From: Moraxella sp.
Lineage (GTDB): Bacteria > Pseudomonadota > Gammaproteobacteria > Pseudomonadales > Moraxellaceae
Length of the DNA stretch: 41,484 bases
Assembly: GCF_030525845.1 (NCBI RefSeq)
Contig: NZ_JAUNDY010000015.1
Location: 1-41,484, forward strand
Reading direction: 5' to 3'
The position numbers and the translations under genes were made by a program. Shown here piece after piece: positions 4,929 through 37,713 of the stretch; the stretch's first letter is position 1, and every line of letters begins with the position of its first letter. The notes below the pieces were generated by a model. It did not search any database. It was given only the letters and a program-made list of their open reading frames with translations, and was not told the DNA's origin.

Positions 4929-5915
4929 TTATAGCAAATGAGCAATCGCATCACGCTCTTCGGTCAGCTCTTTTAGTGTAATATCAATACGTTCTTGGCT
5001 AAATGTGTCAATTTCTAAGCCTTGAACGATTTTGTATTCACCGTTTTCGCAGGTAACAGGGAAGCCAAACATCACACCCTCTGGAATACCATAAGAGCCA
5101 TCCGATGGGATACCCATGGTTACCCATTCACCGTTTGTACCCAATGCCCAATCACGCATATGGTCAATGGCAGCATTGGCAGCAGAAGCAGCAGACGATA
5201 GACCACGAGCCTCAATGATGGCAGCACCACGCTTACCAACGGTCGGTAGGAACACATTGGCGTTCCATTCTTGGTCGTTAATCATCTCTTTAACAGACTC
5301 GCCATTGATGGTGGCAAAACGATAGTCAGCGTACATGGTTGGGCTATGGTTACCCCAAACGGTCAAGTTTTTGATGTCTTTGACCGCTTTGCCTGTTTTT
5401 TTGGCAACTTGGGTCAAGGCACGGTTGTGGTCAAGGCGTAGCATGGCGGTGAAGTTTTTCGCTGGCAAATCAGGGGCAGACTTCATGGCAATGTAGGCAT
5501 TGGTGTTGGCAGGGTTACCAACCACCAAAACTTTGACATCACGGCTGGCGTGGTCGTTTAGGGCTTTGCCTTGTACGGTGAAGATTTTGGCGTTTTCTTG
5601 CAAAAGGTCGGCACGCTCCATGCCCGGTCCACGAGGTCTAGCACCCACCAGTAGGGCATAATCAGCATCTTTGAACGCCACATTTGGGTCGTCTGTACCA
5701 ATCACATCGTGCAAAAGTGGGAATGCACAGTCATCAAGCTCCATAATTACGCCTTGTAGGGCTTGCTGAGCTTTTTCGTTAGGAATTTCAAGAAGTTGTA
5801 GAATGACGGGTTGGTCTTTGCCCAGCATTTCGCCAGAGGCAATGCGAAACAGTAGGCTATAACCGATTTGACCTGCGGCACCAGTTACCGCAACACGAAC
5901 GGGTTGTTTACTCAT
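4929..5915 (-). CDS. mdh: Malate dehydrogenase (NAD-dependent)
   Basis: A 328-residue cytoplasmic TCA-cycle enzyme that oxidises malate to oxaloacetate with NAD. The N-terminal Rossmann loop [11 protein letters not shown], the [13 protein letters not shown] substrate-binding segment, [16 protein letters not shown] and the catalytic-histidine region WGNHSP are all present. Length and motifs fit the cytosolic-type MDH subfamily found in many beta- and gammaproteobacteria, not the E. coli 312-residue type. AAGGAT lies eight bases before the ATG. It stands alone, with its own terminator, downstream of the minus-strand MNIO operon. Confidence 0.97.
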
Positions 5916-6090
5916 AATACTATCCTTAAAAATTGGGGAATAATTTTGCGATTAAAAACCATTTAAAATCTGCAAAATCGCCCTAGTTTAGCACTTTTTT
6001 GGGGTGCTTGCAAAGGTTTTTTGCTGTCTGTCGCCACGCAAATTGGGCTTTTATGAGTTTTATTGTTATTTATGAATGCTAGTGCCTTCA

Positions 6091-6276
6091 TTATTCCTCT
6101 TTATGCTTTTTGATAATTTGTTTTAAGGTTTGATTGTTTTTATCAAATTGTTTGCAATTTGGGCACATCATCAAATGAAATTTCAGCGTGATTTTTTGCG
6201 ACCATGTTAAAGGCTCTTCTTGCGACAAACTTGCAAGCTGGGTAATTTTTTGGCAATTTTTTAGTTGTTTCATCAT
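6091..6276 (-). CDS. Zinc-finger anti-sigma-like peptide (ZAS, HX3CX2C)
   Basis: A 61-residue protein with His34, Cys38 and Cys41 in FHLMMCPNC, the HX3CX2C motif of zinc-binding anti-sigma factors, and a further Cys8 that could complete the metal site. It has no membrane segment, so it would be a cytoplasmic, redox-sensitive type of anti-sigma. It follows the ECF sigma gene directly: the sigma TAG stop lies inside this gene's ribosome binding site (AGGTGG), followed by tandem ATGATG. That coupling is typical of sigma/anti-sigma pairs. An earlier GTG at 6282 is possible. Family knowledge suggests oxidation or metal exchange at the Cys residues releases the sigma factor; this is inference here. 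Confidence 0.75.
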   Translation of the reverse strand: MMKQLKNCQKITQLASLSQEEPLTWSQKITLKFHLMMCPNCKQFDKNNQTLKQIIKKHKEE

Positions 6277-6282
6277 ATCCAC

Positions 6283-6870
6283 CTACACAAACCATTTTGC
6301 CGACAAACACATTTGCAACCTTAATCTTGCCCTGTATAATAATACATATAAATTTTGACGAGTGATGTTTAGGTTTTGGCAAATCTCATCACTGCCTAAT
6401 TCTATATACTCTTTCATTAAAAAAGCCCTTGCCTGTTCTTTGGGTAGATTTTCTAAACATATTTCAAGTACTTGCCAAAATTCATTATTTTCAGCATTGT
6501 GATGAGGGTTTTGCCAACTGTCATCAAACGCATTGGGAGAGACGCCTTGTTGCCAATGCCCAATTTCATCAAACAGTGTGGCCAAAAACATTTCATCATC
6601 ATATTCATCATTGATTTGACTTAGATGGGTATATCTTTTATTTTGGCGAATAAAGTCAGCAATTTTATTTTTTAAAATGGCAAAAACCCAAGTTTTAAAG
6701 GTAGATTTACCCTGAAAACTATCAGCATATTTTAAAGCATTTACCAGAGCATCTTGGACGACATCTTTGGCATGTTGTTCGTTGTCAAGCTGATTATAAG
6801 CAAAAGAAAACATGGACTCATATATTTCCTCCATACCGTCTTTATCAAAATGATGTAAGTTATTTGTCAT
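6283..6870 (-). CDS. ECF-type RNA polymerase sigma factor
   Basis: 195 residues with sigma region 2 (helices around residues 15-80, including FKTWVFAILKNKIADFIR) and region 4 (about 137-185, LPKEQARAF and ITRQNLYVLLYRARLRL), joined by an acidic linker. No region 1 or 3 is present, so it is a group 4 (ECF) sigma. The start overlaps the end of the DoxX gene by 11 bases and the stop abuts the zinc-finger anti-sigma gene, so all are one transcript. Sigma factors of this type are often found with DUF692/DUF2063 operons. It most likely activates the operon's own promoter near 11744-11773. Confidence 0.88.
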   Translation of the reverse strand: MTNNLHHFDKDGMEEIYESMFSFAYNQLDNEQHAKDVVQDALVNALKYADSFQGKSTFKTWVFAILKNKIADFIRQNKRYTHLSQINDEYDDEMFLATLFDEIGHWQQGVSPNAFDDSWQNPHHNAENNEFWQVLEICLENLPKEQARAFLMKEYIELGSDEICQNLNITRQNLYVLLYRARLRLQMCLSAKWFV

Positions 6871-7498
6871 TGTTCACTTTCTTAAAAACCCAATAATCAA
6901 TACTCAAAAACCGTCCTGCCCCATAAATAATCAACACCAAAAGCATGATAAAATAAGTCATGCCAAACTCAATGCCGTTATTTAAAATGACAAAATTACC
7001 AGTTTCGGTAAGCCAATCATAATTGCCGTGCGTTTGCAGGATTTCACGGGCTTTATTTAGTCTTTGAGCTGCTTGTACTGAGTTGTCCAAACTTGCTTGA
7101 CCAAAACCACCAAAAAGCTGGGCAATGCTTGTGCTAGGGTCGGTAGGGGTAATGGCATGCCAGCCGTTTTTGAGATGCACCGTCATCATCGCCACCGCCA
7201 TAGTGATGGCAAGCATTATACCAAATAAGCGAGTTGCCAACCCAAAAAGTAGTGCCACACCGCCCACAAGTTCGGCGATAATCACCACAACCACCCAAAA
7301 TGATGCAAAAGGCAGTCCAAGTCCCCACTCACTATTACCAAACCAATTGACCGTACTCTCAAAATTTTGATATTTATTTAGCCCTGCCATGATAAATACA
7401 GGAGCAAGATATAAACGAATGACAAAAAGTGCCAATACGTCAAAACTTTTTAATCTATCAGTCAAAACCAAATAATGATGTGTAAATTTTTTTATCAT
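6860..7498 (-). CDS. DoxX-family membrane protein of the MNIO operon (HvfD-like)
   Basis: 212 residues with about four membrane helices. It opens with a short cytoplasmic segment followed by VIRLYLAPVFIMAGLNKYQNF, which matches the DoxX start pattern (R...G..K...F). The ATG at 7496-7498 overlaps the TGA of the DUF2063 gene (ATGA), showing translational coupling; this is preferred over an in-frame ATG at 7514-7516. Compared with a typical 130-150-residue DoxX there is a loop of roughly 50 residues between helices 3 and 4. DoxX proteins accompany DUF692/DUF2063 pairs in many proteobacteria. Their biochemical role is unclear; a redox or export role at the inner membrane is inference. Confidence 0.82.
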   Translation of the reverse strand: MIKKFTHHYLVLTDRLKSFDVLALFVIRLYLAPVFIMAGLNKYQNFESTVNWFGNSEWGLGLPFASFWVVVVIIAELVGGVALLFGLATRLFGIMLAITMAVAMMTVHLKNGWHAITPTDPSTSIAQLFGGFGQASLDNSVQAAQRLNKAREILQTHGNYDWLTETGNFVILNNGIEFGMTYFIMLLVLIIYGAGRFLSIDYWVFKKVNNDK

Positions 7499-8280
7499 GA
7501 ATGCTCCACATAACATACTTGATTATCAATCATGGTCGTCATTAATTCATCAAATGAAGAGTCAATCATGGATAACACCTCATCATTTAATTCAAAAGTT
7601 TTTTGTAATGCGTCAAGCAATTCATCACGATGAATATAAACAACACCTTGATTTGCTTTTTCTTGCAAAAATGTCAAAACCACAAAACTAAGCTGATTGA
7701 TACTCATAAAAGCGGTTTTATGTTTATCATCATTTTTGCGGTAGACAATGATAAAATTAGGCTGTTTTTCTTTTGGTAAAAAAGATACACCAATATCAGA
7801 TACCGCCCATTCATAATATAAAATTTGAACCGTTGGATTCATCAAGATGGTGTGATGATTATCTATTAGACAAGGTTTGGGATTGGTATTTGGCAGATTA
7901 TCTACATACAGCTCAATCCATTCATAATGGGCAAGCTCTCCCAAAAATAAAGGCAAATCAAATCTTGATAGTACCTCATCGGTCAAATACGCCACAAACT
8001 GTTCGTTAATCTGACTAAAATAGGGGCTTGCCATGTCACCATGTTTGAGAAAATCTTTGATGAGATTTTGCCAAATTTCTATTCCAAAATGATTTTGGAC
8101 GATTTGGCGACATATGGGAAAACATTGATTGACAAAGCCTGAAACATTATTATAAATCAAACTTTGGTATAACCTACCGACACGATTTGGCACATTATCT
8201 GTGTCATCATGGCGTTGTTTACGAATATAATCACCAAATTGACTCTGAAAAGCACGCAGATTGGGAATTTTGTCAATCAT
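7495..8280 (-). CDS. hvfC: DUF2063 partner protein of the MNIO (HvfC/BufC-like)
   Basis: 261 residues. The N-terminal 90 or so carry the DUF2063 pattern, with an FQSQFGDYIR start and QSLIYNNVSGFVNQCFPICRQIV. The C-terminal part is a more variable alpha/beta domain. In characterised systems this protein pairs with the DUF692 enzyme and helps it bind the precursor peptide. The gene starts two bases after the stop of the MNIO gene and overlaps the DoxX gene by ATGA, so the proteins are probably made in fixed ratio. No catalytic residues are expected. Assignment rests on the N-terminal pattern plus gene order. Confidence 0.85.
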   Translation of the reverse strand: MIDKIPNLRAFQSQFGDYIRKQRHDDTDNVPNRVGRLYQSLIYNNVSGFVNQCFPICRQIVQNHFGIEIWQNLIKDFLKHGDMASPYFSQINEQFVAYLTDEVLSRFDLPLFLGELAHYEWIELYVDNLPNTNPKPCLIDNHHTILMNPTVQILYYEWAVSDIGVSFLPKEKQPNFIIVYRKNDDKHKTAFMSINQLSFVVLTFLQEKANQGVVYIHRDELLDALQKTFELNDEVLSMIDSSFDELMTTMIDNQVCYVEHS

Positions 8281-8282
8281 TT

Positions 8283-9188
8283 TTATGCCAATTTAAAGGT
8301 GGACTGATATTTGTGTTTTTGTTGGACTTCACGGATAAAATTCACTTCACTAATGAGTTCGCCAAGCTCTGGGAAGTTAAAATCACGCTCCAAACAAGTA
8401 GGGATTTTATCAGCCGTTTTACCAGTTTTGTCAAAAATCAGCCCATAAGCGTCATTTAACAACTCCCAAACACGCTCCACCACGCTGTCGCCATGCGTAT
8501 CCACAATCAATCCATCATCATCCACATAATGTCCTGCCACGTGCAAATAGCAGGTGCGTTCAAGAGGTAATTCACGCAGATACTGATGTGGGTCAAAACC
8601 AAAATTTTGGCTATTGACAAAAATGTTATTGACATCTAAATGCAGCAAACAATCCGCCTCCGCCACCACTGCCGAGATAAACTCACTATCCGACATCTGG
8701 CTTTGGGGTGGTAGATAATAGTACGAGGCATTTTCTATGCCGATTTGGGTGCCCAAAATGTCTTGGACTTGTTTGATGCGATCAGCCACCCAAAATACCG
8801 CCTCATCAGTACAAGGAATGGGCAACAAGTCATACAAATGCCCTTTATCATCACTGCACCAAGACAGATGTTCGGTAAACAGATTCATGCCATGCGAGTG
8901 CATGAACTGCTTGATGTTTTTGACGTGAGCGACATCAAGCTCTTTTGATGAGCCAATGGACAATGACAAACCATGACAAATAAAATCAAAACGCTCGGTA
9001 TAGGCTCTTAATGTTTTATCAAAACGTCCGCCCATTTGCCCTGCCGAATTAATCCAGTTTTCGGGCGAAACTTCAAAAAAATCAATCTGATTTAGATGAT
9101 GAACCGCATTTATGTCATCAAATGACATTTGGGGCAATAACTCACGGCGAAAACCCAAGCCTGCACCAGATAAAGTTTTGTTTGTCAT
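8283..9188 (-). CDS. hvfB: DUF692 multinuclear non-heme iron oxygenase (MNIO, HvfB/BufB-like)
   Basis: 301 residues spanning a full DUF692 TIM barrel. Putative metal ligands and their contexts are His72 (ICHGLSLS), Glu106-His107 (FTEHLSW), Glu152-Asn153 (GIENASYY), Asp185-Asn187 (HLDVNN), His216 and His220 (LHVAGH), Asp230-His232-Asp234 (DTHGD) and Glu268 (LERDF), in the expected order and spacing. The family uses two or three iron ions and oxygen to rewrite cysteines in ribosomally made peptides, forming oxazolone-thioamide or thiooxazole groups that bind copper. The likely substrate is the EGKCG-rich peptide at 11274-11690, encoded first in the same gene run. The ribosome binding site is weak (GGAAAA). 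Confidence 0.93.
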   Translation of the reverse strand: MTNKTLSGAGLGFRRELLPQMSFDDINAVHHLNQIDFFEVSPENWINSAGQMGGRFDKTLRAYTERFDFICHGLSLSIGSSKELDVAHVKNIKQFMHSHGMNLFTEHLSWCSDDKGHLYDLLPIPCTDEAVFWVADRIKQVQDILGTQIGIENASYYYLPPQSQMSDSEFISAVVAEADCLLHLDVNNIFVNSQNFGFDPHQYLRELPLERTCYLHVAGHYVDDDGLIVDTHGDSVVERVWELLNDAYGLIFDKTGKTADKIPTCLERDFNFPELGELISEVNFIREVQQKHKYQSTFKLA

Positions 9189-9204
9189 GGTTTATTTTTT
9201 CCAA

Positions 9205-9414
9205 TTATTGAGGTTTATTATCATCGCTGTGGCACGTTTTACAAGTACTCATGCCCAAAAGATGATAAATGGGACAAAAATTAATCAAACCTGTCAAAAG
9301 TGGTACAAGTCCAATCACGCCCCACCAAGAACCAAAGGCAACACCCAAGCCAATAATGACCACACCCAAAACGATGCGTGCGATTTTGTCAGGTTTACCG
9401 ACATTGATTTTCAT
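9205..9414 (-). CDS. DUF2892 / YgaP-like transmembrane peptide
   Basis: 69 residues with an opening typical of DUF2892 (MKINVGKPDKIARIVLG) and two membrane helices separated by a Trp-Gly turn. The C-terminal half contains NFCPIYHLLG and CKTC. In E. coli YgaP the same domain is fused behind a rhodanese domain. Here it is a separate gene that starts nine bases after the stop of a rhodanese gene (9424-9810), with AGGGG as ribosome binding site. A role in sulfur or redox handling at the inner membrane is inferred from that link. The CxxC at the end could carry a persulfide or metal. Confidence 0.82.
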   Translation of the reverse strand: MKINVGKPDKIARIVLGVVIIGLGVAFGSWWGVIGLVPLLTGLINFCPIYHLLGMSTCKTCHSDDNKPQ

Positions 9415-9423
9415 GGCAATCCC

Positions 9424-9810
9424 CTAGCGGTAGCCTTGTTTGACCAAATCTTCATAACCACCATGATTGACCACATTGGTATAACCCATACCAATCAAAG
9501 TCTGGCGAGCGGTCTCGGCACGTCTGCCACTACGGCAATATAGGTTGATAGGAGCGTTTTTGTTGGGTTCTACACTTGCGATTTGGCTTGCGATTTTATC
9601 CACTGGGATATTTAGGCTGCCTTTTAGATGTCCTGCGTTAAACTCATCGGCAGTACGCACATCAATCCACACACCTTTAGCTTTGGGTTTGACATCTTGC
9701 ACACTTTGACTTTGGGCAGGTTTGACAGTCTGAGCGTTGGTGGTTTGGGCGTTGGCACACGCACCAAGAGCAAACGTGCTTGCGATGATGATAGGAATGT
9801 ATTTTTTCAT
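9424..9810 (-). CDS. Exported single-domain rhodanese, probable lipoprotein
   Basis: 128 residues. The N-terminus KKYIPIIIASTFALGAC is a signal peptide ending in an LGAC lipobox (Cys18), so the protein is likely lipidated and periplasm-facing. A rhodanese domain covers about residues 45-128, with DVRTADEFNAGH and the active loop CRSGRR (Cys92). Such domains carry sulfur as a cysteine persulfide. The ATG at 9808-9810 has AGAGGTG upstream and is preferred over an extension to 9834. It lies between the RclA-like and DUF2892 genes in one tight run. It may supply or remove sulfur during oxidative or copper stress, which is inference. Confidence 0.85.
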   Translation of the reverse strand: MKKYIPIIIASTFALGACANAQTTNAQTVKPAQSQSVQDVKPKAKGVWIDVRTADEFNAGHLKGSLNIPVDKIASQIASVEPNKNAPINLYCRSGRRAETARQTLIGMGYTNVVNHGGYEDLVKQGYR

Positions 9811-9846
9811 AAAACACCTCTGATTTAAAGTCATGTCGTTTAAAAA

Positions 9847-11163
9847 TTAAAATTGAGCAAACAAATCGTTGAGTGCTTCGCTGATGGTTGGGTGAGTAAA
9901 TATTTGATTTTTAAAATAATCTGCCGTAACACCGTTATCCATAGCCAATTTAAATAAGTTGATAATCTCATGAGAGTCTTCGCAAAACAATGTAACGCCC
10001 AAAATCTCACGGCTGTCTTTATCAATAATCGCTTTTAATAGACCGTCTGTCTCCCCTGTGATTTTGGCTTTGACGACATTGACGGCTGGCATGGTGGCAA
10101 CGGCATAATTTTTACCGCTTTGTTTTGCTTGATTTTCATTCATGCCGATTTGTGATAATGGCGGTGTGATGAAAACGCTGGTAGGAAAAACCTGACGGTC
10201 GCTGGTGTGCCGTGTGCCATCGCCATACAGATGGTTGGCGATGATGCGATAATCGTCAAGCGAGATATAAGTAAACTGCGGTGAACCTGCCACATCGCCC
10301 ATCGCCCAGATGTTTTCTGCTGCTTTGAGTGTCTCATCACACACGACATGACCACGCTCTGTTAGTTTGACGCTCGTGTTTTGTAGGTTTAGTGCGTCTG
10401 TATTGGGTCGTCTACCCATAGCAACAAGCACCGCATCTGCCGGCAGAGTCATCTTGTCGGTGATGACATCGGTATGAGTGTCAAAATGCTCAAATTTTTG
10501 CAAATTTTGCCCCAAATGTAGCTTGATACCACGCCGATCTAAAAGTCCAAACACGATTTGGCGTACATCATCATCAACACTGGGTAAAAATTGGTCAAAT
10601 TTCTCAATAAGCGTTACCTCACTGCCAAAATTGGCATACATAAAGGCAAACTCTAAGGCGATAAATCCTGCACCAATGATGACAAGTCGCTTGGGGGCTG
10701 TGTTGGCACTTTTGGATAAATTTAACAGCCCTGTACTGTCATGAATGCGTAAGCCGTCCACGCCTGCCACCTTTGGCATGACAGAGGTCGCCCCTGTGTT
10801 GATAAAAATCCTCTGGGCATGCACACGCTGACCTGTGGAAAGCTCTACGGTGTGATTGTCAATAAAACTTGCCTGTGCATTTACTACCGTAACATGAGAC
10901 AAATCATCAAGTCGCTTAAAATTGGCTTCACGCAACGCACCAATCAGCTTGTCTTTGTTTGTCATGGCGGTGGCAAAATCGGTGTGCTTTCCTTCAAAGA
11001 TGAGCTTTTTGGAAGGGATACAGCCGACATTAATGCACGTACCACCATACATTTGGGCAGATTGCTCCACCAAAATGGTCTCTTCACCATGTACATTAAA
11101 CAATCCTGCAAGCGTTTTGCCTGCCTTGCCAAAGCCAATGATTAGGTTTTTGGTCTGTATCAT
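9847..11163 (-). CDS. rclA: RclA-like pyridine nucleotide-disulfide oxidoreductase
   Basis: 438 residues of the class I flavoprotein disulfide reductase family. FAD-binding GFGKAGK near residue 10 is followed by the redox pair Cys43 and Cys48 in GGTCINVGCIPSK. The NAD(P)H-binding GAGFIALEFA comes later and the C-terminal HPTISEAL carries the active-site His-Glu. The GFGKAGKTLA start and MYGGTCINVGCIP spacing agree with E. coli RclA as I recall it, rather than with lipoamide dehydrogenase or MerA, which has an N-terminal metal domain. RclA protects against reactive chlorine species and reduces Cu(II) with NADH. ATG at 11161-11163, with GGGTGA upstream, is preferred over the adjoining GTG. It sits between the MNIO precursor and the maturation genes. 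Confidence 0.85.
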   Translation of the reverse strand: MIQTKNLIIGFGKAGKTLAGLFNVHGEETILVEQSAQMYGGTCINVGCIPSKKLIFEGKHTDFATAMTNKDKLIGALREANFKRLDDLSHVTVVNAQASFIDNHTVELSTGQRVHAQRIFINTGATSVMPKVAGVDGLRIHDSTGLLNLSKSANTAPKRLVIIGAGFIALEFAFMYANFGSEVTLIEKFDQFLPSVDDDVRQIVFGLLDRRGIKLHLGQNLQKFEHFDTHTDVITDKMTLPADAVLVAMGRRPNTDALNLQNTSVKLTERGHVVCDETLKAAENIWAMGDVAGSPQFTYISLDDYRIIANHLYGDGTRHTSDRQVFPTSVFITPPLSQIGMNENQAKQSGKNYAVATMPAVNVVKAKITGETDGLLKAIIDKDSREILGVTLFCEDSHEIINLFKLAMDNGVTADYFKNQIFTHPTISEALNDLFAQF

Positions 11164-11196
11164 CACACATCACCCAATGATTTTGTTGAAAAATTT

Positions 11197-11260
11197 AAAA
11201 AAGCCCCAGAGCAAGGACGAAATACGTCCAAGCCCCAAAATAAACCGTTTGTTTGGTTTA
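11197..11260 (-). terminator. Attenuator-like hairpins between precursor and rclA
   Basis: On the minus strand, just after the hvfA stop, there is a TAAACC/GGTTTA hairpin (11241-11260). A second hairpin follows with arms GGACG and CGTCC (11215-11229), an outer GGGC/GCTC pairing, and a run of six T at 11197-11202. Only about 34 bases remain before rclA, leaving little space for a separate promoter. It probably lets part of the transcription through and keeps the precursor in excess. Confidence 0.6.
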
Positions 11261-11273
11261 CAGCTTTGTTAGA

Positions 11274-11690
11274 TTATTTGGCGCCACCACAGCTGGCTGA
11301 GGCGTTTTTATCCGTGCTAGCACCACAGCTTGCCGAAACTGTTTTATCCGCACCAGCATTTGCACCACATCCTGCGTTGGCAGATTTGTCAGCACTGGCT
11401 TCTGCACCGCACTTACCCTCACCGCATTTGCCTTCGGCGGTTTTGTCGGTCATGGTAGCACTGCACCCTGCTTCACCACATTTTCCCTCGCCACATTTGC
11501 CTTCGGCAGTCTTGGTGTCAGTGGCAGTGTTAGTTTCAGGTTGGGCAGTACTTGCAGGTTGGGTTTTTTCGGCGTTTTGGTAGCCTTGTTCCATGGGCTT
11601 AGCTTCGGCTTTTTCTTCGCCACAAGCGGTTAGGGTAGTCGCCAAAAGACCTGCCATGGCAAGCCCTGTGAGTTTTTTGGTGTTTGACAT
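11274..11690 (-). CDS. hvfA: EGKCG-motif RiPP precursor (HvfA/oxazolin-like), Cys-rich exported peptide
   Basis: 138 residues. The signal peptide ends in an LTAC lipobox (Cys23), so it may be a lipoprotein. A spacer rich in Glu, Thr and Gln follows. Then come four EGKCG motifs in two tandem pairs at residues 63-72 and 86-95, an EAGC at 73-76, and three degenerate [AS]CG sites at Cys108, Cys122 and Cys134. EGKCG repeats are the hallmark of the Haemophilus HvfA/oxazolin precursors, whose Cys residues are converted by an MNIO into copper-binding groups. The MNIO and its partner lie in the same gene run. The start is one of tandem ATGs at 11693 and 11690; I chose the second because GGAGA then has normal spacing. 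Alternative reading: a plain Cys-rich metal-buffering lipoprotein. Confidence 0.85.
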   Translation of the reverse strand: MSNTKKLTGLAMAGLLATTLTACGEEKAEAKPMEQGYQNAEKTQPASTAQPETNTATDTKTAEGKCGEGKCGEAGCSATMTDKTAEGKCGEGKCGAEASADKSANAGCGANAGADKTVSASCGASTDKNASASCGGAK

Positions 11691-11743
11691 CATATTCTCC
11701 AAAGTTAAAAAATAAGTCATCATAAAACCGCTTTATGATGATA

Positions 11744-11773
11744 CTTAGACGTAGTAAGTGTAATTTTCTTACA
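11744..11773 (-). promoter_or_regulatory. ECF-sigma-like promoter for hvfA operon
   Basis: On the minus strand, TGTAAG (11768-11773) and CGTCTA (11746-11751) are separated by 16 bases. The -10 CGTC and -35 with GTAA core are typical of ECF sigma promoters. The distance to the hvfA start (about 55 bases) is suitable. The operon's own ECF sigma factor (6283-6870) is the obvious candidate to use it. Confidence 0.6.
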
Positions 11774-11790
11774 AAAAAATTTCAAAATTA

Positions 11791-11828
11791 TGGCAGGATC
11801 AATGGTTTTTACGCCAAAAACCCTGCCA
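11791..11828 (-). terminator. Terminator of the ion-transporter operon
   Basis: Nested stem: TGGCAG pairs with CTGCCA at the base and GGTTTTT with AAAAACC inside. T-rich sequence follows on the minus strand. It isolates the hvfA operon from transcription arriving from the transporter gene. Confidence 0.7.
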
Positions 11829-11848
11829 TTTTATCATTGGGCAGACAC

Positions 11849-13171
11849 TTAAAAATATCGCCACACCAAATAACCGTGTGCCATCGCAATCATGATAAGC
11901 ATGAGTGGGAAAGCGTATTTGGTAAACTGTATCATAGAAATGGGCTGTTTGGCTTTTTCGGCAAAGCCTGCCACCGTCAAGTTGGCAGACGCACCGATGA
12001 GCGTGCCGTTACCCCCCAAACACGCCCCCAGTGCCAACGCCCACCACACAGGGCTAAATTCTGTACCTTCTGGCATCTGAGTTTGGGCGGTGTGTAGCAG
12101 TGGAATCATGGTTGCCACAAACGGAATATTATCCAAAAATGACGACAAAATCGCCGACACCCAAAGCACCATCAGTGCCATTTTGACGACATCGCCACCT
12201 GTAATATTCATCAGTTCATTACCAAGTAAATCAAGTAGCCCACTATGTTCTACCGCACCGACAATGATAAACAGCCCCATAAAAAAGAAAATCGTTACCC
12301 ACTCCACTTCGCCAAAAGCATGGTGGATTTTTTCGGCTTGATGTTCTGCATTCTCACCGCCAAACGCCAACAGCATCAGTAGACCTGCCCCTGATAGTGC
12401 CATCGTGCCAGGCTCAATGCCCAGTCCATGACCCACAAAAAACCCAATGATCACAAGGGTAAACACAAAGGCACATTTTTTGAGCAATGTCACATCGGTA
12501 ATGGCATCACGCTCGTTAAACTGCATGATTTGGGAGCGAGCTTTTGGAGTGGTTGTCAGATTTTTGGCAAACATCATCACCAGTATCGCTGTGATGACCG
12601 CCAAAATGACCACCGCAATCGGTGCCATATGAATGACAAAATCGCCAAAGGTAAGATGAACTTTTGAGCCAATTAAGATGTTAGGCGGGTCGCCAATCAG
12701 CGTCCCTGCCCCACCAATGTTGGACGCCAAAATGGTGGAAAACAGATAAGGAAACGCCTTGATGCCAAGCTGCTCGGTAATCAGTAGCGTTACAGGCGTG
12801 ATGAGTAGTACGGTGGTAACGTTGTCCAGCAACGCCGAAAAAAGTGCCGTGATGACGATAATCATCGCCAAAATCCCCACAGGACTTGCTTTGACAAGCT
12901 TAGCAGAGCAAATCGCCACGTATTGAAACACACCTGTCCTTGCGGTAATACTGACCAAAATCATCATGCCGATGAGTAGCCACAGCGTGTTCCAGTCCAC
13001 TTTGGCAAGGGCTTCGTGCTGATTTAACAGCCCCAGATAAATCGCCAAACACGCACCGAGTATCGCCACAACCGCACGGTTGATTTTTTCGGAAATTAAA
13101 AAGCCATAAACAATAATAAGTAGTATGCCTGACAGCCACATATGGGCTGAGGCGTGATTTAGTAAGTCCAT
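11849..13171 (-). CDS. IT-superfamily ion transporter (NhaD/ArsB-like)
   Basis: 440 residues, about 11-12 membrane helices in two related halves. The diagnostic re-entrant motifs are LLDNVTTVLLITPV and SNIGGAGTLIGDPPN in the first half, and SSFLDNIPFVATM and CLGGNGTLIGASAN in the second. These are typical of the ion transporter superfamily that includes NhaD Na+/H+ antiporters, ArsB and the P-permeases. Which ion moves cannot be read directly, although the GDPPN segment favours the NhaD/P-permease branch. A CBS-domain gene ends 21 bases upstream on the same strand and is probably co-transcribed, suggesting nucleotide-sensing control of transport. Confidence 0.82.
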   Translation of the reverse strand: MDLLNHASAHMWLSGILLIIVYGFLISEKINRAVVAILGACLAIYLGLLNQHEALAKVDWNTLWLLIGMMILVSITARTGVFQYVAICSAKLVKASPVGILAMIIVITALFSALLDNVTTVLLITPVTLLITEQLGIKAFPYLFSTILASNIGGAGTLIGDPPNILIGSKVHLTFGDFVIHMAPIAVVILAVITAILVMMFAKNLTTTPKARSQIMQFNERDAITDVTLLKKCAFVFTLVIIGFFVGHGLGIEPGTMALSGAGLLMLLAFGGENAEHQAEKIHHAFGEVEWVTIFFFMGLFIIVGAVEHSGLLDLLGNELMNITGGDVVKMALMVLWVSAILSSFLDNIPFVATMIPLLHTAQTQMPEGTEFSPVWWALALGACLGGNGTLIGASANLTVAGFAEKAKQPISMIQFTKYAFPLMLIMIAMAHGYLVWRYF

Positions 13172-34695: not shown

Positions 34696-36084
34696 TCAAA
34701 ATCCCCCCACAGGAGCAAAGCTAATCCCAGTATCAAGCTTGGCACCGTCCATCAGCATGACCGCCCAAGACAGCCACACATCATCATGCCCCGCCACGTC
34801 CATTGTGCCGTCATTGGCTATTTGACGGGGTTTATCATCAAGCGATACATCAGGTATGACCCCCACTCCATCAATTTGTTTGCCATCAGCGGTCAAATAG
34901 TGAGCTGTTGTCATCTTTACCGCCTGACCGTCGCCCAATGGAATGACCGACTGCACCGAGCCTTTACCGTAGCTGGTCTCGCCGACCACGAGTGCTCGCT
35001 TGGAGGATTGCAGGCTACTGGCTAGCACCTCAGCGGCAGACGCTGAATAGCGATTTTGCAGTATCATCACAGGTAGCTCGATGAGCAGGGGCGAGCCTTC
35101 GGTTTTTAGTTCACGCTCCACCCCTTGCCGTCCTACCACTTGTACTACTGTCTGATTTCGCATGAATAATGATGCTACCGCCCCCGCCGACTCCAATACA
35201 CCCCCCGGATTATTTCGCAAATCCAAAATCACGCCAGAAATAGGCACGCCCACCAATCCCAAACTCTCCAAAATCTGCTGACGGGTGTTGTTTTGAAACA
35301 CAGGCAGTTTAATTACCGCCACGCCATCAATGATGGTCGTTTCAACATTGCTTTTAATGACTTCGTTTCGCTGAACCGAAAGCCGTCTCTTATTACGTCC
35401 TGCATTTGAGATGACAACATCTACCTGAGTACCTGCAATACCGTTTAATAGTTGTAACACATCACTGCTACTTTGGAATTCACTTAGCTTGGTATCGCCA
35501 ATTTGGTGTAGATAGTCGCCCACCCTAATGCCAGCACGTTTGGCAGATGAACCCTCCTCCACCTGCGTTACCACCCAGTGAGCCTCTGATGCCTGATAAC
35601 TTGCCGACACGCCAATGTTTGCCACATGACCTGATGTGAATGATTGCAGATTGTTAAATGCCTCTTTATCCAAAAATTCTGCATGACTATCAAGCCCTGT
35701 CATCATACCCTTGATGGCATAGCGAAATAACGCCTCATCGCCCACTTCCTCAACATAATCACGACGCACCAAATCCACCACCGACACAAACGTCTTTAAG
35801 GTATTTGGCGACACCGCCCCAAGTGGCACACGCCCATGATGAAGCCCATCAATACCATGCAAGGGATTGGGTTTGGCTTCTAGCACGTCCAGATTGGGTG
35901 TTTCGTGTACTGACGACATATCATCGCCATCATCATGACCATCGCCATAACCAAACAGGTTGGCAACTTTTAAGATGGGTGTGCTAATGACGTTTGATAA
36001 ATTGGCATGAGCCGATGTACCAAGCATGAGTGCCATCACAGACGCTAGGATAGTTTTTGAAAAATAGGCACGATAAAAGGTCAT
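34696..36084 (-). CDS. ctpA: Carboxy-terminal processing protease (S41)
   Basis: 462 residues. A signal peptide (LGTSAHA) leads into a helical N-terminal part, a PDZ domain (about residues 150-235, VEEGSSAKRAGIRVGDYLHQIGD) and the S41 domain. That domain has LDLRNNPGG, the serine-containing RYSASAAEVLASSL and the lysine in ETSYGKGSVQ; these form the Ser-Lys dyad. It is a periplasmic protease that trims C-termini of envelope proteins and often controls murein hydrolases. It starts 72 bases after gpmI on the same strand and is probably co-transcribed. Confidence 0.92.
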   Translation of the reverse strand: MTFYRAYFSKTILASVMALMLGTSAHANLSNVISTPILKVANLFGYGDGHDDGDDMSSVHETPNLDVLEAKPNPLHGIDGLHHGRVPLGAVSPNTLKTFVSVVDLVRRDYVEEVGDEALFRYAIKGMMTGLDSHAEFLDKEAFNNLQSFTSGHVANIGVSASYQASEAHWVVTQVEEGSSAKRAGIRVGDYLHQIGDTKLSEFQSSSDVLQLLNGIAGTQVDVVISNAGRNKRRLSVQRNEVIKSNVETTIIDGVAVIKLPVFQNNTRQQILESLGLVGVPISGVILDLRNNPGGVLESAGAVASLFMRNQTVVQVVGRQGVERELKTEGSPLLIELPVMILQNRYSASAAEVLASSLQSSKRALVVGETSYGKGSVQSVIPLGDGQAVKMTTAHYLTADGKQIDGVGVIPDVSLDDKPRQIANDGTMDVAGHDDVWLSWAVMLMDGAKLDTGISFAPVGGF

Positions 36085-36156
36085 GACGATTCCTGATTAG
36101 ACAATAACCAAAAGCGGATAAATTCACACAACATGCAAATTTATCCGCCCAACCAA

Positions 36157-37713
36157 TTAAGCTTCTACAAGCAAGCTCTCGCCTGTCATTTCGTTTGGCT
36201 TATCAAGCCCCATCAAATGTAAAATGGTCGGTGCAACATCGCACAGCCGTCCACCGCCACGCACACTCACTTGTTTGTCGCCCACATAGATAAACGGCAC
36301 AAGCTCTGTGGTGTGTTGGGTATGCACTTGTCCACTTTCATAATCCATCATCTGCTCGCAGTTACCATGATCTGCCGTGATGAGTAGATGTCCACCCATC
36401 TCACGCACCGCAGAGACAATCTCGCCGATACAGGTATCCACCGCTTCGACCGCTTTAACCGCCGCCTCGAATACCCCTGTATGCCCCACCATGTCGCCAT
36501 TGGCGTAGTTGATGATGACCACGTCAAATTCGCCTGACAAAATGGCTTCTTTGAGATTATCAGTAACTTCGAACGCACTCATCTCAGGCTTTTCATCATA
36601 GGTTGTAACTTTTGGGCTGTTGACCAAAATGCGTTTTTCGCCATCATAAAGTTCCTCACGTCCGCCACTAAAAAAGAAACTCACGTGCGGATATTTTTCA
36701 GTTTCGGCGATACGAAGCTGAGTTTTGCCGTTGTTTTGCAAATATTCGCCCAACGTATTGGCAAGGCTTGTTGGATAATAAGCCACAGTGGTTTTGGGGT
36801 TGTTTTCAAGCTCATCGGAGTATTTTGTCATCATCACAAAGGCGGATAGCTCAGGTATAGATTTGCGTTCAAACCCATCAAAATCCGCACTCACAAAGGC
36901 TTGGCTGATCTCTCTGGCACGGTCGGCACGGAAATTGACAAAAATCACGCCATCGTTATCGGCAATCACGCCATTATCATCGATGATGGTCGCTTGTACA
37001 AATTCATCGGTCTCATCTGCCTCATACGCCATCTGTATGGCATGGCTTGCGTTATTGGCTTCACGCACCGCTTTGGCAGTAGTCAAAAGGTCATAGGCAC
37101 TTTGCACTCGCTCCCAACGCTTGTCTCTGTCCATCACAAAAAACCGCCCAATGACGCTTGCGATTTTGGCTTCACAGACATAAGTGGCGTTAAGCTCGCT
37201 CAAATATTCTTCTAAATCCACCACATACTCATCAGCGGATTTGGGTGGTGTGTCTCGTCCGTCCAAAAAGGCATGGATAAATACTTGGGTTGCCCCTTGC
37301 TCTACCGCAAGGCGTGCAGTCGCCTTGATGTGGTCGATGTGAGCATGCACACCCCCATCAGAGAGCAAGCCCAAAATATGCACCGCCCCTTCGTTTTCTA
37401 CGGTATTTTTGACGGCATTTACCAAAACTTCGTTGTTGAAAAATTCGCCTGTCCCAATGTCATTCATGATGCGAGTGGAGTCTTGGAACAAAATCCGTCC
37501 CGCTCCTAGATTCATATGCCCCACTTCGGAGTTGCCAAACTGACCATCTGGCAAACCCACGTCCATGCCAGAGCCTGAAATCAGACCATTGGGGCAACTT
37601 GCCATCAAAGCGTCCAAATTGGGAGTTTTTGCGGCATAAACAGCGTTATCTTGTGGGTCTTCACGATGTCCGACACCGTCCAAAATCATCAATACGTGAG
37701 GAATTTTTTTCAT
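36157..37713 (-). CDS. gpmI: 2,3-bisphosphoglycerate-independent phosphoglycerate mutase
   Basis: 518 residues, the normal length. Metal-binding Asp12 lies in MILDGVGH and the phosphorylated Ser62 in [25 protein letters not shown], the late metal-binding HTG and [11 protein letters not shown] motifs are also present. The enzyme interconverts 3- and 2-phosphoglycerate in glycolysis and gluconeogenesis with two manganese ions. AAGGG precedes the ATG. It leads a likely two-gene unit with ctpA. Confidence 0.97.

What the first reader, a model, noticed from the sequence alone, without database searches (positions are those of the whole stretch)
6091..11773. Complete self-contained MNIO RiPP operon with its own ECF sigma/anti-sigma pair
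Seen: nine minus-strand genes, most overlapping or within a few bases, encode an EGKCG precursor, RclA-like flavoprotein, exported rhodanese, DUF2892 peptide, DUF692 enzyme, DUF2063 partner, DoxX protein, ECF sigma and ZAS peptide. Known: DUF692/DUF2063 pairs modify Cys in HvfA/oxazolin and bufferin precursors to make copper-binding groups. Inference: this is a stress-induced copper-chelating RiPP system extended by three redox/sulfur genes placed between precursor and enzyme. The combination with RclA and a split YgaP is one I do not know as a described unit.
Basis: partly seen in the sequence, partly recalled or inferred. Interest (0 to 1): 0.85.

Follow-up and report, generated by a model that had tools for sequence, protein, structure and literature searches.

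The report
Copper-binding peptide operon with oxidant-defence genes
A small bacterial operon appears to make a membrane-anchored copper-binding peptide and, in one group of related species, has taken in genes for coping with immune-type oxidants, so copper control and oxidant defence may be switched on together by one stress sensor.

Summary
The nine genes are there, at the stated coordinates and in the stated order. Six form a known type: an oxazolin (HvfA/EGKCG, "captophorin") RiPP operon (hvfA, hvfB, hvfC, hvfX) with an ECF sigma and a ZAS anti-sigma. Between hvfA and hvfB lie an RclA-like flavoprotein, an exported PspE-like lipoprotein rhodanese and a DUF2892 membrane peptide; "split YgaP" fits only the last.

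The linkage was tested. In the genus, 10 of 22 genomes carry hvfB; 6 of these 10 (about three lineages) keep all nine genes in order, in three sets of flanks, with the extra genes under purifying selection. One more species has only the rhodanese in the slot; one sister-genus cluster has only DUF2892. An ECF-type promoter motif precedes hvfA in 10 of 10 and matches once in the window's own genome. The linkage is local: it was found in 6 of 348 family genomes.

Most likely this is an oxidant-induced operon joining a lipidated copper-binding peptide to RclA-type detoxification. Whether the extra genes act in maturation or in parallel is open; inducer, chemistry and copper binding are inferred from relatives. 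New variant of a known kind.

The parts
11745..11773 (-). ECF-type promoter motif TGTAAG-N17-GTCTAA, 80 bases before the hvfA ATG at 11693 (50 before the longer-frame ATG at 11723)
   Evidence: Only match to TGTAAGN{14,18}GNCTAA in the own genome, 94% complete; backwards control has 4. Same pattern upstream of hvfA in 10 of 10 hvf genomes of the genus
11274..11693 (-). hvfA: EGKCG precursor, 139 aa, 9 Cys, four EGKCG motifs, lipobox LTAC (Cys24)
   Evidence: NF050137 49 bits over cut-off 19.5; NF050188 36 bits below cut-off 95; motif positions; lipobox
11164..11273 (-). hvfA-rclA intergenic stretch with a terminator-like hairpin; possible attenuator (inferred)
   Evidence: Fold -29.7 kcal/mol, no shuffle control; terminator-like stem at 11218-11203 followed by a T run, but such sites are not more common in the region than in shuffles (6 against mean 5.5)
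9847..11163 (-). RclA-like pyridine nucleotide-disulphide oxidoreductase, Cys43/Cys48 (CINVGC)
   Evidence: NF040477 532 bits, cut-off 740; best solved relative 6KGY, E 2.5e-125 (that 6KGY is E. coli RclA is recalled); Cys positions
9424..9810 (-). Exported lipoprotein rhodanese, PspE-like, lipobox LGAC (Cys18), active loop CRSGRR (Cys92)
   Evidence: PF00581; NF007627 78 bits below cut-off 102; PspE 2JTQ E 1.9e-17; positions
9205..9414 (-). DUF2892 / YgaP-like TM peptide, 69 aa
   Evidence: PF11127, 77.4 bits
8283..9188 (-). hvfB: MNIO (DUF692) RiPP maturase
   Evidence: NF003818 376 bits over cut-off 360; 3BWW E 4.8e-64; DVNN and DTH motifs present
7495..8280 (-). hvfC: DUF2063 / RRE partner protein
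   Evidence: NF050145 176.5 bits over cut-off 142; PF09836 and PF22106
6860..7498 (-). hvfX: DoxX-family membrane protein
   Evidence: NF050144 218 bits over cut-off 80
6283..6870 (-). ECF sigma factor
   Evidence: TIGR02943 215 bits over cut-off 162
6091..6282 (-). ZAS-type anti-sigma peptide, 63 aa
   Evidence: NF052368 65 bits over cut-off 50; C-X25-H-X3-C-X2-C

Best explanation
This is one oxidant-induced, self-controlled operon. An oxidant is sensed by the zinc-binding ZAS peptide, which releases the ECF sigma; the sigma reads a promoter in front of hvfA (inferred from relatives). HvfB with HvfC then modifies the cysteines of the EGKCG repeats, most likely to 5-thiooxazoles, and the peptide is exported and lipidated at its lipobox, giving a membrane-anchored periplasmic copper buffer (inferred from HvfA, FonA and NedA). 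The RclA-like flavoenzyme works in the cytoplasm on the same insult (HOCl/HOSCN plus copper). The lipoprotein rhodanese and DUF2892 handle oxidised or sulfane sulfur at the envelope. Shown here: anatomy, conserved order, conserved promoter motif, purifying selection. Inferred: inducer, chemistry, copper and the role of each extra gene.
For: Core families over curated cut-offs. Nine-gene order kept in 6 of 10 hvf-bearing genomes of the genus, in three sets of flanks. One clade of linked RclA, 100/98. dN/dS of rclA 0.13-0.19, rhodanese 0.19-0.33, DUF2892 0.14-0.22. ECF-type motif before hvfA in 10 of 10, a single match in the own genome, no sigma-70-like match on the operon strand in the hvfA-rclA gap. 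A related motif before unlinked rclA in 2 of 7 loci looked at. In H. influenzae a four-gene cluster of the hvf families is induced by HOCl through RpoE2 (PMC7907618, passages). E. coli RclA protects against HOCl plus copper (PMC7527725, abstract) and is a HOSCN reductase (PMC12096828, passages). A lipidated EGKCG RiPP was made from Neisseria dentiae genes (PMC12636315, passages).
Against: The three genes are dispensable for an hvf operon: G011, G014 and G021 have none in the cluster, G016 only the rhodanese. Outside the clade no linkage was found. RclA and HvfB co-occur only weakly across 348 genomes (8 have both, Fisher p 0.012; genus p 0.08), and genomes are not independent. The RclA-like protein is below the RclA cut-off. 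DUF2892 of G005 is split over two frames. A terminator-like hairpin lies between hvfA and rclA, and sigma-70-like matches in the region exceed shuffles (27 against mean 15.3, sd 3.9), one of them just before hvfB (9244-9217) and one overlapping the ECF motif, so internal or extra promoters are possible. The ECF pattern is less common genome-wide than its backwards control (36 against 116 in 22 genomes). No expression, mass or metal data exist here.
Confidence: 0.65

Rival explanations
1. The extra genes take part in making the RiPP. HvfB/HvfC need reduced HvfA thiols and a mixed-valent iron cluster, and the inducer is a thiol oxidant; the RclA-like flavoenzyme, placed between precursor and enzyme, keeps HvfA cysteines and HvfB iron in the workable state, while the rhodanese and DUF2892 act on sulfur at the envelope.
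For: HvfBC activity needs reductant both for the iron cofactor and for HvfA thiols (PMC13419390, section 18); the terms 'physiological reductant' and 'reductase' have 0 occurrences in that paper's main text. The genes lie exactly between hvfA and hvfB in 6 of 6 nine-gene loci; the slot is used repeatedly (rhodanese in G016, DUF2892 in G607b, DUF2798 in G005 and G002).
Against: Four of 10 hvf clusters of the genus do without RclA. Published HvfABC gave fully modified peptide on co-expression without an added RclA (PMC13419390 passage; PMC12668002 passage), although E. coli, the likely host, has an rclA of its own. RclA and the rhodanese occur together without hvf in G020 and G609.
Confidence: 0.17
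2. Two separate defences share one promoter. The rclA-rhodanese module is an oxidant-detoxifying unit of the family that was captured by the hvf operon for its ECF promoter; it has nothing to do with copper or the peptide.
For: An unlinked rclA-rhodanese pair exists in G014, G020, G607 and G609, with a DUF302 gene in front in G014, G607 and G609; a DUF302 gene of the same family lies upstream of hvfA in G005 and G017. An ECF-like motif stands before unlinked rclA in G607 and G609.
Against: The retained order in three sets of flanks with the extra genes inside, not after, the RiPP genes; the published link of RclA with copper (PMC7527725).
Confidence: 0.3
3. The extra genes are recent chance passengers without function at this place.
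For: DUF2892 of G005 split over two frames; linkage confined to one clade.
Against: dN/dS well under 1 over dS of about 0.4-1.3; full-length open frames of rclA and rhodanese in 6 of 6; block kept through changes of flank.
Confidence: 0.05

Closest known systems
hvf operon (oxazolin) of nontypeable Haemophilus influenzae
   Same: HvfA/B/C/X, EGKCG repeats (PMC13419390); RpoE2-dependent induction by HOCl of a cluster of the same families (PMC7907618; that the two clusters are the same is my reading)
   Different: There the sigma/anti-sigma pair lies in another gene region, and no RclA, rhodanese or DUF2892 is named in the operon in the passages read; here all are in one operon
Neisseria SigE DoxX gene cluster and Neisseria dentiae NedABC
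   Same: ECF group 13 with ZAS anti-sigma, DoxX cluster (PMC7907618 passages); NedA is a lipidated EGKCG RiPP made in E. coli (PMC12636315 passages), so a lipobox on such a precursor is known
   Different: No RclA, rhodanese or DUF2892 named in the passages read
fon/captophorin and Buf_EGKCG clusters
   Same: MNIO plus DUF2063 partner plus EGKCG precursor, often DoxX; copper binding (PMC12668002, PMC12452194; passages and one section)
   Different: Extra genes named there for EGKCG clusters are oxidored_molybd or ferric reductase types; rhodanese, RclA and DUF2892 have 0 occurrences in the main text of PMC12452194
rclABC of Escherichia coli
   Same: RclA-like flavoprotein with Cys43/Cys48, reactive-chlorine theme
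   Different: No DUF1471 (RclB type) or DUF417 (RclC type) gene among the nine; ECF sigma in the operon instead of RclR; protein below the RclA equivalog cut-off
YgaP (rhodanese plus TM in one chain; recalled)
   Same: DUF2892 is the YgaP-like TM family (PF11127)
   Different: Rhodanese is a separate exported lipoprotein nearest to PspE among named small rhodaneses

Membership tests
HvfA/EGKCG (oxazolin, captophorin) RiPP operon | MNIO enzyme of the HvfB family | tested here: met
   NF003818 376.1 bits, cut-off 360; iron-ligand motifs as in 3BWW
HvfA/EGKCG (oxazolin, captophorin) RiPP operon | DUF2063/RRE partner HvfC | tested here: met
   NF050145 176.5 bits, cut-off 142
HvfA/EGKCG (oxazolin, captophorin) RiPP operon | Exported precursor with paired EGKCG repeats | tested here: met
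   NF050137 49 bits, cut-off 19.5; four EGKCG motifs; export signal judged by lipobox pattern only. The narrower equivalog NF050188 is not reached (36.3 bits, cut-off 95)
HvfA/EGKCG (oxazolin, captophorin) RiPP operon | Cys converted to 5-thiooxazole; copper binding | not testable with these tools
   needs co-expression, mass spectrometry and metal assays
ECF sigma with ZAS anti-sigma (group 13 type) | ZAS motif C/H-X23-26-H-X3-C-X2-C next to an ECF sigma | tested here: met
   C-X25-H-X3-C-X2-C (motif as given in PMC7907618); TIGR02943 and NF052368 over cut-off. Group 13 itself was not tested
ECF sigma with ZAS anti-sigma (group 13 type) | Release by oxidants | not testable with these tools
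   H. influenzae rpoE2 is oxidant-induced and held by HrsE (PMC7907618, passages); not measured here
RclA | NCBIfam equivalog score | tested here: not met
   532.4 bits, cut-off 740; filed as RclA-like only
RclA | CxxxxC pair and full-length sequence relation | tested here: met
   Cys43/Cys48; 6KGY E 2.5e-125 over residues 6-436
RclA | HOSCN and Cu(II) reductase activity | not testable with these tools
   enzyme assay needed
HOSCN reductase MerA (NF041853) | NCBIfam equivalog score | tested here: not met
   485.5 bits, cut-off 650
YgaP | Rhodanese and TM domain in one chain, or two halves of it | tested here: inconclusive
   TM half met (PF11127); rhodanese carries a lipobox and is nearest to PspE among named small rhodaneses; no chain named YgaP among 46 sequences up to E 5
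PspE | NCBIfam equivalog score | tested here: not met
   78 bits, cut-off 102 (NF007627)

The most novel reading that the evidence does not exclude
A RiPP that is induced by thiol oxidants carries its own oxidant shield: the RclA-like enzyme (with the rhodanese and DUF2892) keeps HvfA cysteines and HvfB iron usable while the cell is under HOCl/HOSCN attack, so that the copper-binding peptide can be made when it is needed. RclA would then be a functional part of a RiPP pathway, and copper and hypothiocyanite defence would be one system.
Probability: 0.17. Interest if true: 0.78.

Novelty: new variant of a known kind. Interest (0 to 1): 0.55.

Why it matters
Copper-binding EGKCG peptides and RclA have both been tied to reactive chlorine and copper, but separately. 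Here they lie in one operon with its own sigma factor, the RclA-like gene set inside the RiPP genes and kept there by selection. That gives a natural test of whether the peptide's job is copper control during oxidant attack, and of what keeps HvfB/HvfC working in an oxidising cell. The range of gene orders in one family (core only, plus rhodanese, plus DUF2892, all three) also shows how a RiPP operon can take in stress genes.

Tried and rejected
Rejected: "split YgaP" for the rhodanese part. Rejected: direct descent of the linked rclA from the unlinked G014/G607-type rclA; the tree puts the linked copies with the unlinked G015 copy and two Prevotella rows instead, although part of the gene order is shared. 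Rejected: a partnership of the rhodanese with DoxX as the rule, since G016 has the rhodanese but no DoxX in the cluster.

Led nowhere, or against the reading: Rfam on 5850-11900 gave 0 matches at gathering threshold. Plasmid searches gave hvfB and rclA relatives only below 60% identity (353 and 386 records; 20 rows of each seen, none opened). In the 39 RclA loci of genome contigs (flanks of up to 10 kb, often shorter) tblastn found no HvfA, HvfB, HvfC or HvfX at E 0.01; L060 has a weak ECF match (23%) and L055 and L056 have a rhodanese within 1 kb of rclA. The ECF pattern is not enriched genome-wide: 36 matches in 22 genomes against 116 for the pattern read backwards; its weight lies in its place. 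Of the 8 unlinked rclA loci of the family I looked at 7; 5 of the 7 lack the relaxed motif before rclA, though in G015 the contig ends 135 bases upstream; G689 was not fetched. The whole-genome protein searches scored at most 4 first-look candidates a genome for RclA, so a true RclA could have been missed.

Rows left out: the RclA tree used 13 of the 39 genome-contig loci (L050-L062); its script would have dropped copies under 380 aa. The rhodanese tree left out 2 external rows, and 8 of its 19 rows stood in no group. The HvfB tree used 19 loci, not the six more distant ones (G434, G479, G619, G605, G731, G517). Only 11 of the 81 hvfB-positive family genomes outside the genus were looked at in their neighbourhoods or 21 beyond HvfB itself as listed there: G607, G654, G665, G677, G695, G699, G700, G705 and six distant ones, and G022, G024, G025, G031, G032, G033, so 20 of 81 in all (the number 11 is superseded by this list). 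No structure was predicted and no fold search run.
Full report
WHAT IS THERE. The nine genes exist as described, with gaps of 110, 36, 9, 16, 2, -4, -11 and 0 bases in transcription order. Six match curated families over their cut-offs: HvfB, HvfC, HvfX, the EGKCG precursor domain, the ECF sigma (TIGR02943) and the anti-sigma. The precursor has 139 residues, nine cysteines, four EGKCG motifs and a lipobox LTAC at Cys24; a lipobox pattern is found in HvfA of 8 of 10 hvf genomes of the genus, all six nine-gene ones among them. The rhodanese has a lipobox LGAC and the loop CRSGRR; the RclA-like protein has the CxxxxC pair at 43/48; HvfB has the DVNN and DTH motifs that hold iron-site ligands in relatives (ligands as named for HvfB in PMC13419390, section 23). 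The RclA-like protein is below the RclA cut-off (532 of 740 bits) and below that of the HOSCN reductase MerA (485 of 650), so only "RclA-like" is claimed.

SURVEY OF THE GENUS. Of 22 genomes held for the genus, 10 have HvfB over the cut-off. All nine genes in the same order are found in 6 of these 10: G000 (the window), G001, G002, G005, G017 and G018. Four of the six (G002, G005, G017, G018) are close to each other, so they count as about three lineages. G016 has the rhodanese alone between hvfA and hvfB, and no hvfX in the cluster; G011 has none of the three and no hvfX; G014 and G021 have the core with hvfX only. Flanks of the block (gene names are my readings of the translations): in the window an mdh-like gene downstream and an arsB-like gene upstream; in the other five an rnhB-like gene downstream, with a DUF302 gene upstream in G005 and G017 and an RtcB-like gene upstream in G001, G002 and G018. 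G005 and G002 carry a further small gene, DUF2798, between hvfA and rclA. DUF2892 of G005 is split over two frames.

SELECTION AND DESCENT. Pairwise dN/dS (four pairs each) is 0.13-0.19 for rclA, 0.19-0.33 for the rhodanese and 0.14-0.22 for DUF2892, against 0.05-0.08 for hvfB. The linked RclA copies form one clade (100/98), with the unlinked copy of G015 next. HvfB of the nine-gene genomes forms a group (93/94) with G016 next (89/83), and the rhodaneses inside hvf clusters, G016 included, form a group against those beside unlinked rclA (92/96) in a poorly resolved tree (2 of 16 inner branches starred). This fits either stepwise gain or gain followed by loss. One of two hvf clusters of G607, in another genus of the family, has DUF2892 alone in the same slot.

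REACH. In 348 genomes of the family, 14 have RclA at E <= 1e-90 and 91 have HvfB at E <= 1e-40; 8 have both (Fisher p 0.012, genomes not independent; p 0.08 in the genus) and 6 have them linked. In 369 genomes drawn from the class only the window's own genome has RclA at that level; these searches scored at most four candidates a genome for RclA. In 39 RclA loci from genome contigs no HvfA, B, C or X was found nearby. As far as seen, the linkage is a trait of one clade.

PROMOTER. Upstream of hvfA lies TGTAAGAAAATTACACTTACTACGTCTAA. The pattern TGTAAGN{14,18}GNCTAA, made from these promoters, has one match in the own genome, this one (the backwards control has four). In the genus it matches upstream of hvfA in 10 of 10 hvf genomes, among 36 matches in all; the backwards control has 116. 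One more match lies near a contig end of G003, beside a relative of the gene that flanks hvfA in G021, and two lie before an ICMT-family gene in G016 and G011. A relaxed form stands before hvfA in 7 of 7 clusters looked at in genus g9, in 2 of 2 of G607 and in 3 of 6 more distant clusters (L171, L173, L175), and before unlinked rclA in G607 and G609 but not in five other unlinked rclA loci. The relaxed form occurs 25 times in 406,107 bases against a simulated mean of 8.0. G609 has no close ECF relative, so there the motif may be a relic or serve another sigma. Sigma-70-like matches in the region also exceed shuffles (27 against 15.3), so other promoters are not excluded.

THE UNLINKED MODULE. 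A DUF302 gene, rclA and the rhodanese stand together without hvf genes beside them in G014, G607 and G609; G020 has rclA and rhodanese; in G013 a DUF302 gene and the rhodanese adjoin, with rclA 2-3 kb away on the other strand. A DUF302 gene of the same family also lies next upstream of hvfA in G005 and G017; in G000 its relative is on another contig. So parts of what joined the hvf operon resemble an older stress module of the family, although the linked rclA belongs to another branch than these copies.

WHAT IS KNOWN. In H. influenzae a four-gene cluster of the hvf families is induced by HOCl in an RpoE2-dependent way, with a ZAS-type anti-sigma (PMC7907618, passages). HvfB/HvfC turn HvfA cysteines into copper-binding 5-thiooxazoles, and need reductant for both iron and thiols (PMC13419390, abstract, sections 4, 18 and 23 and passages). 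EGKCG products bind copper and are proposed as captophorins (PMC12668002, passages and section 10). A lipidated EGKCG RiPP has been made from Neisseria dentiae genes in E. coli (PMC12636315, passages), so the lipobox here is a known variation. RclA is a Cu(II) reductase that protects E. coli against HOCl plus copper (PMC7527725, abstract and passages) and a HOSCN reductase (PMC12096828, passages). The published landscape of MNIO clusters names two other extra gene types for EGKCG clusters, and the words rhodanese, RclA and DUF2892 do not occur in its main text (PMC12452194, passages). Literature searches: DUF692 with rhodanese 0 papers; MNIO with rhodanese 0; two of RclA, rhodanese, DUF2892 3 papers, none on hvf by title; Moraxella with DUF692 2 papers, listing only; two of RclA, thiooxazole, bufferin, DUF692, HvfB 25 papers, 15 listed, none of those with RclA beside DUF692, HvfB or thiooxazole. 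All this is for the held open-access library only.

READING. Best reading: one oxidant-induced operon that couples a lipidated copper-binding peptide with RclA-type detoxification. The core identity I hold at about 0.9; that the extra genes serve the same stress, about 0.65; that they act in the making of the peptide itself, about 0.17. The values given for the rivals are not exclusive of the best reading, since the parallel-defence and the maturation readings are narrower forms of it. Novelty: new variant of a known kind.

Noticed in passing
L158, L159, L160, L161, L165, L167 (genus g9): Six of seven hvf clusters looked at in genus g9 carry two tandem EGKCG-type precursors, one with a lipobox and one with an ordinary signal peptide; in the seventh (L166) I saw only the lipobox type.
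   Followed up: partly
L139:3398-4890 and L140:3239-4771: In G016 and G011 the ECF-type motif also stands before an ICMT-family membrane methyltransferase gene followed by a PhzF-family gene (families tested for G016 only), a possible second target of the sigma.
   Followed up: partly
window 11274-11693 and HvfA relatives: GYQN follows the signal peptide of HvfA in 10 of 10 hvf genomes of the genus, mostly as PMxxGYQN, and in part of genus g9; it may be the recognition site for HvfC (seen by eye).
   Followed up: no
L163:6595-6792: DUF2892 alone sits between hvfA and hvfB in one of two hvf clusters of G607.
   Followed up: partly
L036:9757-10015 and L037:3900-4159: A DUF2798 gene lies between hvfA and rclA in G005 and G002 (Pfam run on the G005 copy only).
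   Followed up: yes
L102:6948-7697, L104:5421-6386, L105:1323-2102: The lipoprotein rhodanese also occurs beside an AhpD-like (CMD family) gene in G007, G003 and G021 (CMD tested for G007 only), which hints at a general redox role.
   Followed up: no
L098:6043-8265: In G020 the unlinked rclA-rhodanese pair is followed by a cytochrome b561-family gene.
   Followed up: no
Described only.
   Followed up: no
L043 (G003:C13, about 35,084-36,618): Two neighbouring MNIO-family matches below the HvfB cut-off, probably of another MNIO type.
   Followed up: no
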